Shown: piece after piece, positions 22,303 to 30,579 of the stretch
Position numbering within the stretch: the stretch's first letter is position 1
Layout of the letters: each line of letters starts with the position of its first letter
Notes under the pieces: model-generated
Told to the model about the DNA's origin: nothing
Database searches by the model: none
Seen by the model: the letters and a program-made list of their open reading frames with translations, nothing else
Assembly: GCA_018606805.1 (NCBI GenBank)
Contig: JAGYWI010000001.1
Coordinates: 248,001 to 312,000 of the forward strand
Reading direction: 5' to 3'
Source of the DNA: Candidatus Magnetomicrobium cryptolimnococcus
GTDB taxonomy: Bacteria; Nitrospirota; Thermodesulfovibrionia; Thermodesulfovibrionales; Magnetobacteriaceae
DNA: 64,000 bases
Program-made: the position numbers and the translations under genes

Positions 22303-22500
22303 AAGCGCTCCTTTACTTAAACCTTAATATTACTAAATCACCCTTCTCTAAATATTTTAACATCTTTTATAAACATATATACAATTTAGGTAACAAAAAT
22401 TAAGGGCGAAGATGCGAAGGCGCACAGGGAGGTGTTGCCGCACCCATTTTGCCTAAAAGGGTTTTCCCCCGCTCTTCTTTTTATCTTTATTAAAAAGCGC
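22303..22500. repeat. Divergent spacer with repeat element
   Basis: Between the divergent corrinoid and soe transcripts, 22410-22478 carries GCGAAGGCGCACAGGGAGGTG followed by TTTTGCCTAAAAGGGTTTTCCCCCGC, another copy of the mini-hairpin plus C-rich arm. A 49-codon extension of soeA could be read across this DNA from 22432, but the repeat content and the promoter at 22501 speak against it. Confidence 0.6.
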
Positions 22501-22530
22501 TTGACCCTTTTGATAAAATTTTGTTATAAA
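22501..22530 (+). promoter_or_regulatory. Probable sigma-70-type promoter of soeABC
   Basis: TTGACC (22501-22506) and TATAAA (22525-22530) are separated by 18 bases. The predicted transcript would start near 22537, leaving about 40 bases of leader before the ATG at 22579. This supports the shorter SoeA start. Confidence 0.5.
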
Positions 22531-22578
22531 TTTATTTACAAAACTGTAGCAATCTTAAAAAAAAGCGAGAAAAAATCT

Positions 22579-25449
22579 ATGCCTGAATTATTAAAAGAAA
22601 AGGATGGCCACATGCTGGCAAAGGACGAGGACATAAAGTACACGACGTGCTATATGTGTGCCTGTAGATGTGGAATCAAGGTAACCTTAAAAGGGGACAA
22701 AATTCGTTACATACAAGGTAACCCTGCACACCCAACCAATAAAGGTGTTATATGTGCCAAGGGCTCAGCCGGGGTTATGAAACAGTTTAGTCCGGCGCGT
22801 ATAACAAAACCGCTTTTACGTAAAAAAGACGCCAAGCGAGGCGATGGCGATTTTGACGAAATCAGTTGGGACGAAGCTATGGACATATTGGTCAAACGCC
22901 TCAGAAAAATCAGGGAAGATGACCCAAAGAAATTTGCATTTTTTACAGGCCGAGACCAGATGCAAGCACTAACATCACTTTTTGCTAAGCAGTTTGGTAC
23001 TCCTAATTTTGCAGCGCACGGGGGCTTTTGCTCGGTAAACATGGCAGCCGGTATGATTTACTCAATAGGTGGCAGTAGTTGGGAGTTTGGCGGCGTGGAC
23101 TACGATAGGACAAAGTATATGCTACTTTTTGGCGTTGCCGAAGACCATGACTCTAACCCCTTGAAGCTTGGTATTTCTAAAGTAAAGGAGCGCGGCGGTA
23201 AGGTTGTTGTCATAAATCCGATACGCTCAGGCTACGGCGCTATAGCAGACGAATGGGTACCAATTAAGCCCGGCACTGATGGTGCATTTATACTTGCCCT
23301 AATACACGTACTTTTAAAGCATGGGCTTTATGATGTGGATTTTCTAATAAGCCGTACAAATGCCTCTTTCCTTATCTGTATGGATGAAGGGACAGAGATG
23401 GAGGGTATGCCATATCTATTACCGGAAATCTATATGGAAGAAACACAATACACAGTATGGGACCAAAATACAAATAGCGTAAAAGAGGCCTTTTTAGAAG
23501 GTAGTGCTCCAGCACTTTTAGGTAAGTACGTAAGTAACGATGGACACACCTTAAAGCCAGCTATGCAGCTACTGATAGAACGGGTTATGGATGAATATAC
23601 GCCTGAAAAGGCCTCTATAATATGTGGTGTGCCCGTTGAACAAATTAATAGGCTAGCCCTTGAAATAGGCATAACCGCTAGAGATGAAACAATAACCTTG
23701 CCAATACCATGGACAGATGCGTGGGGTAGAAAGCACAAAACCACGACCGGTAACCCTGTAGCTGTGCACGGCATGAGGGGACTTGCAGCGCATTCTAATG
23801 GGTTTCAAACAGTAAGGGCTTTTTCCCTTTTGATGATGCTCCTTGGTATTGTGGATAGACCCGGTGGATTTTTATTTAAGCCACCTTTTCCAAAGCCAGT
23901 ACCACCTTGTCCAAAACCAATAAACTCCCCAGAACAGATAAAGCCAAACACACCGCTTCCAGCCCCTGAGCTTGGCTTTCCATCAATGCCTGAACACCTT
24001 ATGCTCGATGACAATGGCAACCCGCTAAGGATAGACAAAGCCTTTAGCTGGGAATTTCCCCTAACCCCTCACGGCATGATACAAAACGTTATAACCAACG
24101 CATACAATAAAGACCCATATCCGATAGATACCTTGATGTTTTTTATGGCTAATATGAGCTGGAACTCCACAATGAACACCTCGGAAGTTATGAAGATGCT
24201 GCAAGCGCAAGACGATAACGGTGAGTACAAAATCCCCTTTATAGTAGTAAGCGATGCCTTTTACAGCGAACAGGTGGCATATTCTGACTTGGTTTTGCCA
24301 GATACAACGTACCTCGAACGCTACGACGTGGTATCGCTCCTTGATAGGCCAATATGTGAATACGACGCAGCAGCAGATGCCATAAGGGTACCAATACTGC
24401 CGCCAAAAGGTGAGTGCCGTCCATTCCAGCAAACCCTTATAGATGTAGCAAATGCCTTGGGCTTGCCCGGCTTTTGCGATAGTTCTGGCAAACCACTATA
24501 TAAAACCTACGAGGAATTTATCACGAAGTGGGAACCAAGCCCAGGAGCAGGTGTCGGTTTTCTTGCCGGCTGGCGCGGTAAAAACGGTAACGAACATATG
24601 ACTGGTGAGCCAAACCCTAACCAGTTAGAGGCATACATTAAAAACAAGTCATTCTTTAAATATGAGCTACACGACACTATAAAATACAACCGTACAATAA
24701 ATCAGGGATACTTAAACTGGGCTCAAAGCAATAAACTTATAAGATTAAACGACCTAATAATAATGCAGTTCTACTCAGAAGCACTCCAGCGCTTCCGCCT
24801 CTCTGCTAAAGGGCTTCGCAAGGGACGCCAACCAAATACGGATGTTCAGCGTAAACGCATAATAGAGTTTTTCGACCCCCTTCCGTTTTGGTACGAACCA
24901 CTCGAACAGCGCCAAATTGATAAAAAGAAATACACATTCCATGCCATAACACAGCGCCCAATGCCGATGTACCACTCATGGGATAGTCAAAACGCCTGGC
25001 TGCGCCAAATTATTAGCCAGAACTTCCTTTACATAAATACCCAATCAGCCCAAGCCCTCGGTATAAACGACCTCGACTGGGTATGGGTAGAGTCCCCCTC
25101 CGGCAAAATCCGCGTACAAGTAAAACTCTCCCAAGCCGTAAGACCTGATACCGTTTGGACATGGAACGGTATTGGCAAGCACCCCGGGGCTTGGAACTTA
25201 GCTGAAGATGCTGATGAAGCACAAAAGGGCTTCCTACTAAACCACCTTATAAGAGAAGAAATAGACTACTACGACAATAAAAAAATATCCAACAGCGACC
25301 CCATAACCGGTCAAGCTGCTTGGTACGATTTAAAGGTAAAAATAACCAAATCAAAAGAAAGTGGCCTTTGGCCGCAATTTAACCCCTTAAAACCGCTGCC
25401 ACACATGTCAAAACGCCCCAAAACCCTGCGGTATGACTTTATGAGGTAA
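22579..25449 (+). CDS. soeA: Molybdopterin oxidoreductase, SoeA-type sulfite dehydrogenase catalytic subunit
   Basis: The 956-residue protein starts MPELLKEKDGHMLAKDED, with an N-terminal [4Fe-4S] motif (CYMCACRCG ... GVICAKGS). It then follows the complex iron-sulfur molybdoenzyme fold: ITKPLLRKKDAKRGDGDFDE, AAHGGFCSVNMAAG (probable Mo-ligand cysteine), and the C-terminal MopB domain. It lacks a twin-arginine signal and so acts in the cytoplasm, as SoeABC sulfite dehydrogenases do. It would oxidise sulfite to sulfate and pass electrons to SoeB and SoeC. Assignment over thiosulfate or polysulfide reductase rests on resemblance around the FeS motif and on the three-gene layout. Confidence 0.82.
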   Translation: MPELLKEKDGHMLAKDEDIKYTTCYMCACRCGIKVTLKGDKIRYIQGNPAHPTNKGVICAKGSAGVMKQFSPARITKPLLRKKDAKRGDGDFDEISWDEAMDILVKRLRKIREDDPKKFAFFTGRDQMQALTSLFAKQFGTPNFAAHGGFCSVNMAAGMIYSIGGSSWEFGGVDYDRTKYMLLFGVAEDHDSNPLKLGISKVKERGGKVVVINPIRSGYGAIADEWVPIKPGTDGAFILALIHVLLKHGLYDVDFLISRTNASFLICMDEGTEMEGMPYLLPEIYMEETQYTVWDQNTNSVKEAFLEGSAPALLGKYVSNDGHTLKPAMQLLIERVMDEYTPEKASIICGVPVEQINRLALEIGITARDETITLPIPWTDAWGRKHKTTTGNPVAVHGMRGLAAHSNGFQTVRAFSLLMMLLGIVDRPGGFLFKPPFPKPVPPCPKPINSPEQIKPNTPLPAPELGFPSMPEHLMLDDNGNPLRIDKAFSWEFPLTPHGMIQNVITNAYNKDPYPIDTLMFFMANMSWNSTMNTSEVMKMLQAQDDNGEYKIPFIVVSDAFYSEQVAYSDLVLPDTTYLERYDVVSLLDRPICEYDAAADAIRVPILPPKGECRPFQQTLIDVANALGLPGFCDSSGKPLYKTYEEFITKWEPSPGAGVGFLAGWRGKNGNEHMTGEPNPNQLEAYIKNKSFFKYELHDTIKYNRTINQGYLNWAQSNKLIRLNDLIIMQFYSEALQRFRLSAKGLRKGRQPNTDVQRKRIIEFFDPLPFWYEPLEQRQIDKKKYTFHAITQRPMPMYHSWDSQNAWLRQIISQNFLYINTQSAQALGINDLDWVWVESPSGKIRVQVKLSQAVRPDTVWTWNGIGKHPGAWNLAEDADEAQKGFLLNHLIREEIDYYDNKKISNSDPITGQAAWYDLKVKITKSKESGLWPQFNPLKPLPHMSKRPKTLRYDFMR

Positions 25450-25457
25450 AATGTATT

Positions 25458-26186
25458 ATGGCACAATTAGCTTTAGTCATAGATTTAAATAAGTGCGTTG
25501 GTTGCCACGCTTGTGCAACGAATTGCAAGGCATGGAATACGGCCGGCGTGTTTGGTCCACTAACTGACATCGAACCCTATAGTAAAAAACCCTACGGCGT
25601 ATGGTTTAACCGCGTACAAACCTACGAGGTTGGTACTTTTCCTAATACGGAGATTATATACCTGCCCAAATCCTGTATGCACTGTAAAGACGCCCCTTGT
25701 GTTAAGGTTTGTCCAACACAGGCATCCTATAAACGTAAGGAAGACGGCATTGTGCTCGTTGACTACAAGCGGTGTATCGGCTGTAAGTACTGCTCGTGGG
25801 CTTGCCCTTATGGCTGTCGGGAATTTGACATACGTGAAGGCATCATGAAAAAATGCACCCTTTGTCTTGACAGAATCTATAATGAAAATCTACCGGAAGA
25901 CGAAAGGAAACCAGCATGCGTACTGGCCTGCCCCACAAGGGCTAGAATCTTTGGCGATATAGACGACCCACAAAGTCTGGCTTCTCAAGTAATCAGTGAG
26001 TTTATGGGCTATAAATTGATGCCGGAAGCCAACACAAGCCCATCCAACCACTACTTGCCAAGACGCCAAAGCAAGATAAAAATAGATGAGGATGTCGTTA
26101 ACGTAAGAGACTATGCAATTGTAACCACGGAGAAAAAGGTTACCTCCTACAAGGTTTTAATTGCTGAAGATATTGCTATAGCTTAA
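25458..26186 (+). CDS. soeB: Four-cluster ferredoxin-type electron transfer subunit (SoeB-like)
   Basis: This 242-residue protein is of the DmsB/PhsB/NrfC class. Four cysteine sets appear in the usual order: CVGCHACATNC, CMHCKDAPCVKVCP, CIGCKYCSWACP, and CTLC with CVLACP. They support four [4Fe-4S] clusters that carry electrons between the molybdenum subunit and the membrane anchor. It is 8 bases after soeA and 17 bases before soeC. There is no signal peptide, consistent with a cytoplasmic complex. Confidence 0.9.
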   Translation: MAQLALVIDLNKCVGCHACATNCKAWNTAGVFGPLTDIEPYSKKPYGVWFNRVQTYEVGTFPNTEIIYLPKSCMHCKDAPCVKVCPTQASYKRKEDGIVLVDYKRCIGCKYCSWACPYGCREFDIREGIMKKCTLCLDRIYNENLPEDERKPACVLACPTRARIFGDIDDPQSLASQVISEFMGYKLMPEANTSPSNHYLPRRQSKIKIDEDVVNVRDYAIVTTEKKVTSYKVLIAEDIAIA

Positions 26187-26203
26187 AAGAGGAGATAAAA
26201 CAC

Positions 26204-27220
26204 ATGCATCCGGAAGTTTCTTTAGTGTTATTAACAGTACTATCAAGCGCAGGACAGGGGCTTTTTATCTTAACCATCCTACTTGATTTAATTTTTCTAA
26301 AAACCGATATGATACCCAGTAACTTTTTCATAGTATCAGTACTAACCACACTCGTTCTTCAAATAACAGGTATAACGGCCAGCACCTTTCACTTAGGCAA
26401 ACCAGTGCGCGGCTGGATGGCTATTTCCATGTGGAAAAACTCTTGGCTTTCCAGAGAGATAATCTCTATATCTCTCTTCACAGCGTGCGCCTTCATCTAT
26501 GGCATACTCTATAAGTTTTACGTACCACATATGGAAAGAACCCTTATCGGCTTACTTGGCATAGGTGCTGCTTTTAGTTTTTTTATATCTTCCAGCATGG
26601 TCTATGCCTCTATTCGCTTTATCAAGGAGTGGTCTAACGGTTTTACACCCATTAACTTCATCTTATTTGGCATAACAGCTGGCTTTGCCCTTGGGTTACC
26701 TATTTTATTGATGACTAATACGCCAACAGACGTTACACTTACTTTAAGCAAAACCTTAATCGTTATGGGAGTAATCAGCTTTTTATGTAAGTCCATGGCC
26801 TTTAAGTATAATGCCAATATTTACCACTCCATAGACACAAAAAGCGCCGTTGGCATTAATAATCCAAATATTAAACTGATGGATATGGGTACAACCTATG
26901 AACACTTCAATACAAAGGAATTTCACTATTTTATCCCAACAGAAGAACTAATACTAAAAAAGAAAAAGGTTATTGTCATAACCTTTATTCTACCAATTAT
27001 GCTATGGATACTCACAGCGCTTAAACCACTACAAATGATTGCAGACTATATATCTATATTTGCAGTTATTTTAATGATTCGCGGGCTAATAACAGAACGC
27101 TTTTTGTTTTTTGCTGAAGGAAACCACATACAAAATCTGTACTACGGTAACTTTAAATCCTATAAAAACGAAAACCCGTTATTAATAAGCGCTAAAAAAG
27201 GCACTCCTTTACCAAATTAA
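26204..27220 (+). CDS. soeC: DmsC/SoeC-type membrane anchor subunit
   Basis: The 338-residue protein has about eight transmembrane helices, beginning HPEVSLVLLTVLSSAGQGLF. The early motif ASTFHLGKPVRGWMA with a following SWLSREI is characteristic of DmsC-type quinone-linked anchors. It would couple sulfite oxidation to the quinone pool on the inner membrane. The gene has its own GAGGAG site. The operon ends here; a strong bidirectional terminator-like repeat follows. Confidence 0.88.
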   Translation: MHPEVSLVLLTVLSSAGQGLFILTILLDLIFLKTDMIPSNFFIVSVLTTLVLQITGITASTFHLGKPVRGWMAISMWKNSWLSREIISISLFTACAFIYGILYKFYVPHMERTLIGLLGIGAAFSFFISSSMVYASIRFIKEWSNGFTPINFILFGITAGFALGLPILLMTNTPTDVTLTLSKTLIVMGVISFLCKSMAFKYNANIYHSIDTKSAVGINNPNIKLMDMGTTYEHFNTKEFHYFIPTEELILKKKKVIVITFILPIMLWILTALKPLQMIADYISIFAVILMIRGLITERFLFFAEGNHIQNLYYGNFKSYKNENPLLISAKKGTPLPN

Positions 27221-28151: not shown

Positions 28152-29408
28152 TTACTGCCTAAGTTGTCCATCTCCAAAGACAATAAACTTAGTGCTTGTA
28201 AGCTCCTCAATGCCCATAGGGCCACGGGCATGTATCTTATCTGTGGAAATACCAATTTCAGCCCCTAAACCAAACTGCCCACCATCATTTAAGCGTGTTG
28301 AGGCATTCACCATAACAGCGGAGGAATCTACTTCAAGCAAGAACCGTAAGCCTTTCTGGTTATTGGTTGTTACAATAGAATCCGTATGAGCTGACCCATA
28401 CTTATTTATGTGCTCTATGGCTTCATCCATATCCTTTACAATCTTAACATTTAAGATGAGGTCAAGGTATTCATTATAGAGGTCTTCCTCAGAGTAAGGG
28501 TTAACGTCATTATAAAACTCCCTTGTCTTTGTGCAACCCTTTAGAGTAACCCCCGCCTTTGCAAAGCGTTCTAACATTACAGGTAAAAACTCCTTTGCAA
28601 TAGCCGCATCCACAAGCATAGTCTCCATAGCGTTACACGTACCGGGGCGCTGCACTTTAGCGTTAAAACATACTTCTTCCGCCATCTTCAAATCACAATC
28701 CCTATCTACATAAACATGGCACACACCCTTATAGTGTTTAAGTACAGGTATGCGCGAGTGCTCAGTTACAGTGCGAATAAGTCCCTCACCACCCCTTGGA
28801 ATAACAACATCTATAAGCCCCTCTGCCTGTACAAGCTCATATATAGCAGCCCTGTCTTTGTACTCCACAAATGATATAATGCTTTTTGGCAAGGATTCTG
28901 ATGCTACAGCCTCTTTGAGAATGTCTACGATGGCCTTATTGGAGTGAAAAGCCTCCGAACCTCCCCTTAAAATAACAGCATTTCCAGCCTTAAGACACAA
29001 AGCGGTGGCATCAGCTGTAACGTTTGGACGTGATTCGTAAATAATACAGATAACCCCAATTGGCACACGCATCTTACCGACGGACATACCGTTTGGTCTT
29101 TTTCTCATGTAAAGTATCTCACCAACAGGGTCATGTAGGTTAGCAATTTCCATAATGCCATCGGCCATTTCAATTATCCGTTTTTCATTAAGTGTAAGCC
29201 TATCAAGCATAGCCGTTGAAAGCCCTTTTTCTTGGGCATCAGCAATGTCTTTTTTGTTTTCTTCAATTAAAAATGAGATGCGCTCCTTTAAAAGAGACGC
29301 CATCGTTTGCAAAGCCTTATTTTTAGTAACTGAAGTTGCCTTTGCAAGTGCCCTTGAGCCTTGCTTAGCGCCTTTTGCCATTTCCTGTATATACTCACGC
29401 AAATCCAT
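28152..29408 (-). CDS. proA: Gamma-glutamyl phosphate reductase
   Basis: ProA reduces glutamyl-5-phosphate to the semialdehyde in proline synthesis; proC lies at 55361, and proB is not in the window. The aldehyde-dehydrogenase fold shows IYESRPNVTADA, NAVILRGGSEAFHSN and the catalytic cysteine in QRPGTCNAMETMLVD. FGLGAEIGISTDKIHARGPMG precedes the end. The length (418) is normal. It forms a minus-strand unit with rsmA and, 69 bases upstream, the selenoprotein gene. Confidence 0.96.
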   Translation of the reverse strand: MDLREYIQEMAKGAKQGSRALAKATSVTKNKALQTMASLLKERISFLIEENKKDIADAQEKGLSTAMLDRLTLNEKRIIEMADGIMEIANLHDPVGEILYMRKRPNGMSVGKMRVPIGVICIIYESRPNVTADATALCLKAGNAVILRGGSEAFHSNKAIVDILKEAVASESLPKSIISFVEYKDRAAIYELVQAEGLIDVVIPRGGEGLIRTVTEHSRIPVLKHYKGVCHVYVDRDCDLKMAEEVCFNAKVQRPGTCNAMETMLVDAAIAKEFLPVMLERFAKAGVTLKGCTKTREFYNDVNPYSEEDLYNEYLDLILNVKIVKDMDEAIEHINKYGSAHTDSIVTTNNQKGLRFLLEVDSSAVMVNASTRLNDGGQFGLGAEIGISTDKIHARGPMGIEELTSTKFIVFGDGQLRQ

Positions 29409-29477
29409 CTATCCTCCAAGTTAGCGTTGATTATGTAAATTTCCTAAAGGACCAACTGCCCTTTTTATCTACACCCC

Positions 29478-29684
29478 TCAAGCCCCGCCACCAAATCCTA
29501 CAAGTACACTCTCTCCATCAACAATAACAGGCACCTTCCTGTGTCCATTAGAATACCGTAACATATCCTCCATATTCTTTTTAGATGCCCTTACGTCCAC
29601 ATAGGTGGCTTCTGTTCCGTAGGCCGACCTGGCTCTTTCCGTATAGGGTCAACCAGCTTTTCCAAATATGAGTACTTTATCCAT
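29478..29684 (-). CDS. Glutaredoxin-like selenoprotein (Uxx-star family), in-frame UGA = Sec12
   Basis: The reverse strand from ATG at 29684 reads MDKVLIFGKAG-U-PYTERAR, where U is the in-frame TGA at 29651-29649. It continues ATYVDVRASKKNMEDMLRYS, GHRKVPVIVDGE and ends LVGFGGGA before a TGA stop at 29480-29478, giving 68 residues. The fold order (beta strand, U-P-Y-T active site, helix, cis-proline VPVIVDGE, GFGG) is that of glutaredoxin, with selenocysteine at the first active-site cysteine. From memory this matches the family named Uxx-star glutaredoxin-like (seleno)protein. AAGGAG lies upstream, but 12 bases from the ATG. A standard gene caller splits it at the UGA. A pseudogene is the alternative; the intact remainder of the frame argues against that. 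Confidence 0.85.
29623..29633 (-). promoter_or_regulatory. Candidate bacterial SECIS apical stem-loop
   Basis: On the coding strand GCC-AGGTC-GGC lies 15 bases after the UGA codon. The AGGTC loop matches the AGGUCU loop of the E. coli fdhF SECIS that SelB reads, at nearly the same distance from the UGA. The paired stem is short (three G-C pairs, then a mismatch), so the structure is only suggestive. Confidence 0.55.
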
Positions 29685-29820
29685 AGATATGTACTTCTCC
29701 TTAGTAGTTATAAGATTATTATAAATTATAACACTACCTAAAATATTTTATAAATAATAATACATGGGCAATATTTACGCCAAACGGTATTAAAAAAATA
29801 TATAGAAATTTTAGTTCTGA

Positions 29821-30579
29821 TTGTTTTATATTATATTAGTGTTGACTATAATATTTTTTGTCGGTGTCTTTTTACTAATTCCATCGTCCAATTGTTACGC
29901 TTGGGGACCATTAACGCATGTCTTCCTTGGCAATGAGCTTTTAATCTTTCCATATTTAATACCAGCCTCTATATATATGGTTATAAGAAGACACACGGAT
30001 GATTTTCTCTATGGCAACCTAATGGCTGATACTGTTTTAGGAAAAAAATATATGCCTGAACCTGAAAATTCTCACAGTTGGCCATTTGGTTTCAACCTTC
30101 TTTATAATGCAACAAACGAGCATGAAAAGTCTTTTTGTTATGGCTATTTATGCCATCTAGCTGCCGATACAGTGGCTCATGGACTTCTAACGAAAGAAAA
30201 GAAAAACATTGAACACACCTTATATGAGCTTAAGGCAGATAGTTTCATTAATAAAAAATATTGGATTAAAGCTGTAACTATTTTAAAAGCTGCACAACGG
30301 CGAAACGATACATTTCTTGAAAACTCCATGGAAACATATATGTTTTCATTTAAAACCAATAAGCGGATATTTAAGAGCATGGTTTTTATGTCCATATTGA
30401 CGTCTGTAAGCTTTTCGCCGGAGTTTAAGCGAAAAAAATCACTCCTTTCTTACGTACCAGATAAAGACTCTATAAGCAAACTTAGAAGCGAATCTATTTA
30501 TCGTATGGTAGATATTTTAAGAAAAGGAACTGACTCGGCTGTTACACAGATTAGCCCTATGGGTGATTCTGAGGAATAG
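29821..30579 (+). CDS. Secreted zinc-dependent phospholipase C-like protein
   Basis: The N-terminus is a signal peptide (LVLTIIFFVGVFLLIPSSNC then YA) with predicted cleavage just before WGPLTHVFLGNELL. This is significant because in this enzyme family the mature N-terminal tryptophan is itself a zinc ligand. Further ligand-like sites are TDDFLYGNLMADTV and CYGYLCHLAADTVAHGLL. The family name implies phospholipid hydrolysis, but many environmental members are uncharacterised. The start codon would be TTG (29821) or an internal GTG; there is no clear ribosome-binding site. It is a single gene, convergent with the HDAC-like gene. Confidence 0.82.
   Translation: MFYIILVLTIIFFVGVFLLIPSSNCYAWGPLTHVFLGNELLIFPYLIPASIYMVIRRHTDDFLYGNLMADTVLGKKYMPEPENSHSWPFGFNLLYNATNEHEKSFCYGYLCHLAADTVAHGLLTKEKKNIEHTLYELKADSFINKKYWIKAVTILKAAQRRNDTFLENSMETYMFSFKTNKRIFKSMVFMSILTSVSFSPEFKRKKSLLSYVPDKDSISKLRSESIYRMVDILRKGTDSAVTQISPMGDSEE

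What the first reader, a model, noticed from the sequence alone, without database searches (positions are those of the whole stretch)
29478..29684. Unannotated 68-residue selenoprotein with an in-frame UGA at a glutaredoxin-like active site
Reading through the TGA at 29649-29651 gives a complete small thioredoxin-fold protein (MDKVLIFGKAG-U-PYTERAR ... KVPVIVDGE ... GFGG). Selenocysteine replaces the first active-site cysteine, and no partner cysteine follows. Standard gene callers see two useless fragments. The presence implies selA/selB/selC elsewhere in the genome.
Basis: partly seen in the sequence, partly recalled or inferred. Interest (0 to 1): 0.8.

Follow-up and report, generated by a model that had tools for sequence, protein, structure and literature searches.

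The report
Two-selenocysteine UXX-star glutaredoxin-like protein

Summary
The in-frame TGA at 29649-29651 (minus strand) is a selenocysteine (Sec) codon, as proposed. The product is 71 aa, MDKVLIFGKAGU-PYT...GFGGGAU-GV*, and matches NCBIfam NF041114 (UXX-star selenoprotein family 1) at 100.4 bits against a cut-off of 72. All 81 family members collected here end in TGA-x-[VIL]-stop; position 12 is TGA in 58, Cys in 22, TAA in one. A covarying bacterial SECIS-type hairpin follows the second TGA in nearly all, mostly beyond the stop codon. A hairpin follows the first TGA in 45 of 58 Sec12 members but only 5 of 22 Cys12 members; the window's own copy is imperfect. The genome has selA, selB, selC and a selD that itself carries an in-frame TGA; glutathione-synthesis genes were not found. 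The family is already listed in the literature with two Sec, so this is a new member of a known kind. Its function is untested; most likely it is a glutathione-independent redoxin whose C-terminal Sec partners the active-site Sec.

The parts
29469..29684 (-). UXX-star family 1 double selenoprotein gene, 71 codons plus TAG stop (29469-29471)
   Evidence: NF041114 100.4 bits, cut-off 72
29649..29651 (-). TGA = Sec12, glutaredoxin active-site position (UPYT)
   Evidence: TGA in 58 of 81 members, Cys in 22, TAA in 1
29478..29480 (-).
   Evidence: present in 81 of 81 members; profile NF041114 ends with it and the next two residues
29446..29464 (-). Predicted SECIS hairpin for Sec69: stem AAAGGGC/GTCCTTT, loop AGTTG starting 20 nt after the TGA, lying beyond the stop codon
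   Evidence: fold z -3.2; family covariation
29621..29635 (-). Candidate SECIS hairpin for Sec12: GAGCC-AGGTC-GGCCT, 3 bp plus an A.C mismatch plus G.U; imperfect in this genome
   Evidence: position and loop as in relatives; no fold signal in the window copy (z 1.1)
29697..29702 (-). AAGGAG, likely ribosome-binding site, 12 nt before the ATG
   Evidence: read from the sequence
28152..29408 (-). Downstream co-directional gene (Aldedh family; proA-like by sequence), 60 nt after the stop; context only
   Evidence: Pfam PF00171; neighbourhood not conserved

Best explanation
A small one-domain glutaredoxin-fold redoxin with two selenocysteines. SHOWN BY SEQUENCE: both UGAs lie in one conserved reading frame; the second is followed by a bacterial-type SECIS hairpin; the machinery to insert Sec is in the genome. 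INFERRED: SelB with Sec-tRNA decodes UGA12 through a hairpin inside the coding region and UGA69 through a hairpin beyond the stop codon. Sec12 sits at the N-terminus of helix 1 as the nucleophile. The usual resolving Cys of a CxxC motif is Thr, and the protein ends just after the Gly-Gly turn that in glutaredoxins leads to the glutathione site, so the C-terminal tail with Sec69 takes the place of bound glutathione and is the resolving partner, closing a Sec12-Sec69 diselenide (Cys12-Sec69 selenenylsulfide in other phyla). A thioredoxin-reductase-like flavoenzyme would reduce it again. The substrate is unknown: a peroxide, a protein disulfide or a metal(loid).
For: Double Sec: 81 of 81 members keep the C-terminal TGA; position 12 is only Sec or Cys but for one TAA. 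SECIS2: hairpin found in 60 of 61 phylum loci, mean stem score 17.4 against 6.7 in shuffles; 85.9% of cells paired, all 8 pairs with changes on both sides, covariation 0.425 against 0.203 in shuffles and at most 0.135 when slid. SECIS1 tracks Sec12: 45 of 58 against 5 of 22 Cys12 members, Fisher p 1.3e-5. Machinery: selB 376.7 bits, selC 71.6 bits and ARAGORN tRNA-Sec, selA 575 bits, selD 323.9 bits with its own in-frame UGA plus hairpin. Fold: AlphaFold2 pLDDT 94.5, closest to NrdH and glutaredoxin, Z about 9. Tail docking: DSSP marks residues 69-70 and residues 50-51 before Pro52 as strand or bridge, with no other obvious partners. No glutathione synthesis: PF02955 and PF04107 absent. Reductase link: an AhpF/TrxR-like flavoprotein lies 0.6-1.3 kb downstream in ten related loci of the phylum.
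Against: No experiment on this protein or any member was found. The Sec12-Sec69 distance was not measured (no coordinates available). The window's SECIS1 has only 3 clean base pairs and no fold signal. The gene neighbourhood is mostly not conserved and the reductase is not next to it in this genome, which does encode a TrxR-like protein elsewhere. A review suggests that UXX-star Sec residues may bind metals or other substrates instead (PMC13188914).
Confidence: 0.5

Rival explanations
1. A metal or metalloid scavenger: Sec12 and Sec69 form a two-selenolate site that binds a soft metal such as mercury or copper, or an arsenic species, with no redox cycle.
For: A review names Sec residues of the UXX-star family as possible metal-binding ligands (PMC13188914). 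Two Sec in a small fold with no CxxC could make a soft-metal site.
Against: No recurrent metal-resistance neighbour was seen among the commonest neighbour clusters. Sec12 is replaced by Cys while the Pro52 loop and Gly turn of a redoxin are kept. The recurrent redox-type neighbours are AhpF/TrxR-like flavoproteins.
Confidence: 0.25
2. Only one of the two UGAs is decoded as Sec; the other ends translation, or both products occur as a mixture (for example a 68-aa form without the tail).
For: Each UGA competes with release; the window's SECIS1 is weak. Recoding twice in one 71-codon gene should be inefficient (general knowledge).
Against: All 81 members keep U-x-[VIL]-stop and a covarying hairpin follows it. 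Protein-like conservation runs from UGA12 to UGA69. Cys replaces Sec at 12 in other phyla.
Confidence: 0.12
3. A glutathione-dependent monothiol-type glutaredoxin in which Sec12 alone does the chemistry and the tail Sec is accessory.
For: UPYT resembles the CxxS site of monothiol glutaredoxins; Pfam PF00462 match 28.4 bits over its cut-off.
Against: No PF02955 (glutathione synthetase) or PF04107 (GCS2) match in a 98.5% complete genome (other glutathione routes not tested). Sec69 is more conserved than Sec12.
Confidence: 0.12
4. UGA is a reassigned sense codon in this genome, or the frame is a pseudogene with stop codons, and no selenium is involved.
For: Standard translation breaks at both TGAs.
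Against: Other long frames of the window end in TGA (6 of 43); complete Sec machinery; the same two TGAs recur across families of the phylum; purifying selection.
Confidence: 0.01

Closest known systems
UXX-star selenoprotein family 1 (NCBIfam NF041114; 'Distant Grx-like protein 1' in reviews PMC9312934 and PMC13188914)
   Same: Full-length match over the curated cut-off; UxxT at the active site; two Sec, as listed in PMC13188914 Table 1; glutaredoxin fold; ends U-x-x-stop.
   Different: Tail is GGGAUGV, one residue longer before Sec69 than most relatives; SECIS1 is imperfect here. No difference in kind.
UXX-star (seleno)protein families 2 and 3 (NF041211, NF047338) and HUGP/GUXX-star fusion (NF045501)
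   Same: Same glutaredoxin-like domain; weak matches of 44.1, 42.8 and 44.4 bits.
   Different: All far below their cut-offs of 100, 97 and 325.
NrdH-redoxin and glutaredoxin 3 (for example PDB 1h75, 4fiw, 3grx)
   Same: Same fold, Z about 8 to 9 over 62-64 residues; Cys/Sec at the first active-site position; Val-Pro loop.
   Different: UPYT in place of a CxxC site; chain ends after the Gly turn, without the last helix; second redox residue comes from the C-terminus.
C-terminal-Sec redox enzymes such as mammalian thioredoxin reductase (works like; from general knowledge)
   Same: A Sec near the very C-terminus serves a distant redox centre.
   Different: A different, large flavoenzyme with a Gly-Cys-Sec-Gly end. 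Not a relative.

Membership tests
UXX-star selenoprotein family 1 (NF041114) | Profile match over the curated cut-off along the full length | tested here: met
   100.4 bits against 72, profile positions 1-70 of 70
UXX-star selenoprotein family 1 (NF041114) | Sec at the third-last position (U-x-x-stop) | tested here: met
   TGA GGG GTG TAG at 29469-29480; same pattern in 81 of 81 members
UXX-star selenoprotein family 1 (NF041114) | UxxT active-site motif, two Sec (PMC13188914 Table 1) | tested here: met
   UPYT at 12-15 and Sec69; Table 1 entry read
Bacterial selenoprotein gene | SECIS hairpin 16-37 nt after the second UGA, stem of 4 bp or more, G in the first two loop positions, MFE at or below -7.5 | tested here: met
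   7-bp stem, loop AGUUG, 20 nt spacing, -12.2 kcal/mol; criteria from PMC13188914
Bacterial selenoprotein gene | SECIS hairpin after the first UGA by the same criteria | tested here: inconclusive
   No uninterrupted 4-bp stem in the window; the family shows it in 45 of 58 Sec12 members
Bacterial selenoprotein gene | selA, selB, selC, selD in the same genome | tested here: met
Bacterial selenoprotein gene | Sec present in the purified protein | not testable with these tools
   needs 75Se labelling or mass spectrometry
Glutaredoxin (Pfam PF00462) | Profile match over the gathering score | tested here: met
   28.4 bits against 22.9
Glutaredoxin (Pfam PF00462) | Reduced by glutathione | tested here: inconclusive
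   PF02955 and PF04107 not found in the genome; the activity itself is not testable here

The most novel reading that the evidence does not exclude
The protein is a one-domain redoxin that works through an internal Sec12-Sec69 diselenide, with its own C-terminal tail sitting in the glutathione groove, in an organism without glutathione; in other phyla the same fold uses a Cys12-Sec69 selenenylsulfide, so that the C-terminal Sec is the fixed partner and the active-site Sec the exchangeable one.
Probability: 0.4. Interest if true: 0.55.

Novelty: new member of a known kind. Interest (0 to 1): 0.32.

Why it matters
It corrects the gene's extent (two Sec, 71 aa) and shows a pattern that makes the family's chemistry testable: the C-terminal Sec is invariant, the active-site residue swaps between Sec and Cys, and the hairpin behind each UGA follows the presence of that Sec. 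A 71-residue protein with two Sec is a compact system for studying diselenide redox chemistry and double UGA recoding, including a SECIS element that lies beyond the stop codon.

Tried and rejected
Rfam has no match here. The papers that define the UXX-star families (Haft and Gwadz 2023; Haft and Tolstoy 2025) are not held, so their text was not read; one guessed DOI fetched an unrelated paper. Paper searches for UxxT/UGV or for diselenide redoxins of this type gave nothing specific. No relative on plasmids. Neighbourhood analysis: mostly unshared genes; an AhpF/TrxR-like flavoprotein and an isochorismatase-like hydrolase recur in part of the phylum only. Considered and rejected: reassigned UGA, pseudogene, two separate short genes. 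The genome-contig scan could not find Sec12 forms because its pattern demanded Cys at 12; it found Cys12 members instead, which proved more useful.

Full report
WHAT IS THERE. On the minus strand an ATG at 29682-29684, 12 nt after AAGGAG, opens a frame that runs through TGA at 29649-29651 and TGA at 29478-29480 to a TAG at 29469-29471. With both TGAs read as selenocysteine the product is MDKVLIFGKAGUPYTERARSAYGTEATYVDVRASKKNMEDMLRYSNGHRKVPVIVDGESVLVGFGGGAUGV, 71 residues.

FAMILY. The 71-residue product matches NCBIfam NF041114, UXX-star selenoprotein family 1, at 100.4 bits (cut-off 72), over profile positions 1-70 of 70; cutting it at the second TGA lowers the score to 96.7. The general UXX-star model NF041212 is also passed (72.9 against 66); families 2, 3 and the HUGP fusion are not. 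Pfam calls it glutaredoxin, PF00462, 28.4 against 22.9. The review PMC13188914 lists NF041114 as 'Distant Grx-like protein 1', motif UxxT, two Sec, and PMC9312934 lists the same protein. The double Sec is therefore known for the family.

CONSERVATION. A search of 396 genomes of the phylum found a match in 64, and the loci were read through. Together with 20 loci from genome contigs (Nitrospirae, Deltaproteobacteria, Desulfovibrionaceae, Peptococcaceae, Planctomycetes, Acidobacteria and others), 81 distinct members were tabulated. All 81 end in TGA-x-[VIL]-stop (59 are Sec-Gly-Val); position 12 is TGA in 58, Cys in 22 and TAA in one. The genome contigs pattern demanded Cys at 12, so these proportions are not frequencies in nature; and members were tabulated only if the C-terminal motif could be located, seven loci being set aside: three more distant glutaredoxins, two incomplete or divergent ends, and two copies of one gene that has Sec-Gly-Val-Arg before the stop. 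Between the TGAs the median dN/dS of 62 comparable pairs is 0.24, so the stretch is translated.

SECIS ELEMENTS. After TGA69 of the window comes a 7-bp hairpin whose loop AGUUG begins 20 nt downstream; MFE -12.2 kcal/mol, z -3.2. It meets the bacterial SECIS criteria quoted in PMC13188914. In the family the hairpin is found in 60 of 61 phylum loci, mean stem score 17.4 against 6.7 for shuffles. On 46 sequences all eight pairs show changes on both sides; covariation is 0.425 against 0.203 shuffled, and no slid version exceeds 0.135. Because the hairpin lies beyond the stop codon, protein coding cannot explain this. After TGA12 a 5-bp stem with a loop most often AGGUC sits at a fixed place inside the coding sequence; compensatory cells number 20 against 5.3 in shuffles. 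It is present in 45 of 58 Sec12 members but 5 of 22 Cys12 members (Fisher p 1.3e-5); relatedness is not corrected for. The window's copy has an A.C mismatch and shows no fold signal, so its efficiency is open.

MACHINERY. The genome (98.5% complete) has selB (376.7 bits), tRNA-Sec (71.6 bits; ARAGORN), selA (575 bits) and selD (323.9 bits). The selD has an in-frame TGA in the usual place (AAGUGGK) with a hairpin behind it, so the genome has a second selenoprotein gene. TGA also ends other long frames of the window (6 of 43).

STRUCTURE AND MECHANISM. AlphaFold2 on the 58-member alignment A1, with Cys for Sec, gives pLDDT 94.5. The nearest solved folds are NrdH-redoxins and glutaredoxins, Z about 9 over 62-64 residues; the sequence profile agrees. 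The order is strand, helix, strand, helix, two strands, and then the chain ends, without the last helix of glutaredoxins. DSSP marks residues 50-51, just before the conserved Pro52, and 69-70 as strand or bridge. In glutaredoxins the main chain before that proline holds glutathione or the substrate (general knowledge). I infer that the tail pairs there and brings Sec69 to Sec12; I could not measure the distance. No glutathione synthetase (PF02955) or GCS2 (PF04107) was found, which fits a tail that replaces glutathione. In ten related loci an AhpF/TrxR-like flavoprotein lies within 1.3 kb downstream; in this genome the nearest such protein is a TrxR-like gene elsewhere. The redox reading is thus inferred, not shown; metal binding is the main rival and is the suggestion made in the review.

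VERDICT. The family and its double Sec are catalogued, so this is a new member of a known kind. What is added is the evidence that Sec69 is the fixed feature, that Sec12 is exchangeable, and that each hairpin follows its Sec.

Noticed in passing
L018 (own genome C29:40997-41911, minus): selD is itself a selenoprotein gene: in-frame TGA in RVKAAGUGGKLGP followed by a GGUCC-GGC-GGACC hairpin.
   Followed up: partly
L046 (position of Sec12): A relative has TAA where Sec12 should be, while the C-terminal Sec and its hairpin are intact; an error, a dead gene or something odder.
   Followed up: no
L058, L059, L066, L071, L072, L074, L094, L107, L042, L044, 0.6-1.3 kb downstream of the UXX-star gene: An AhpF/TrxR-like flavoprotein recurs, with an isochorismatase-like hydrolase in between in some loci; a possible reductase partner.
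   Followed up: partly
L035 and L100 (same gene): The C-terminal Sec-Gly-Val is followed by one more residue (Arg) before the stop, breaking the strict U-x-x-stop rule.
   Followed up: no
L018, outside selD: Short tandem repeat TGATTCCTAAAA (12 nt, about 7 copies) near selD.
   Followed up: no
window 29821-30579 (+): Zinc-dependent phospholipase C family gene, divergent from the selenoprotein gene and 136 nt away.
   Followed up: no
window 22432-27220 (+): Three-gene molybdopterin oxidoreductase, iron-sulfur and DmsC-type anchor set.
   Followed up: no
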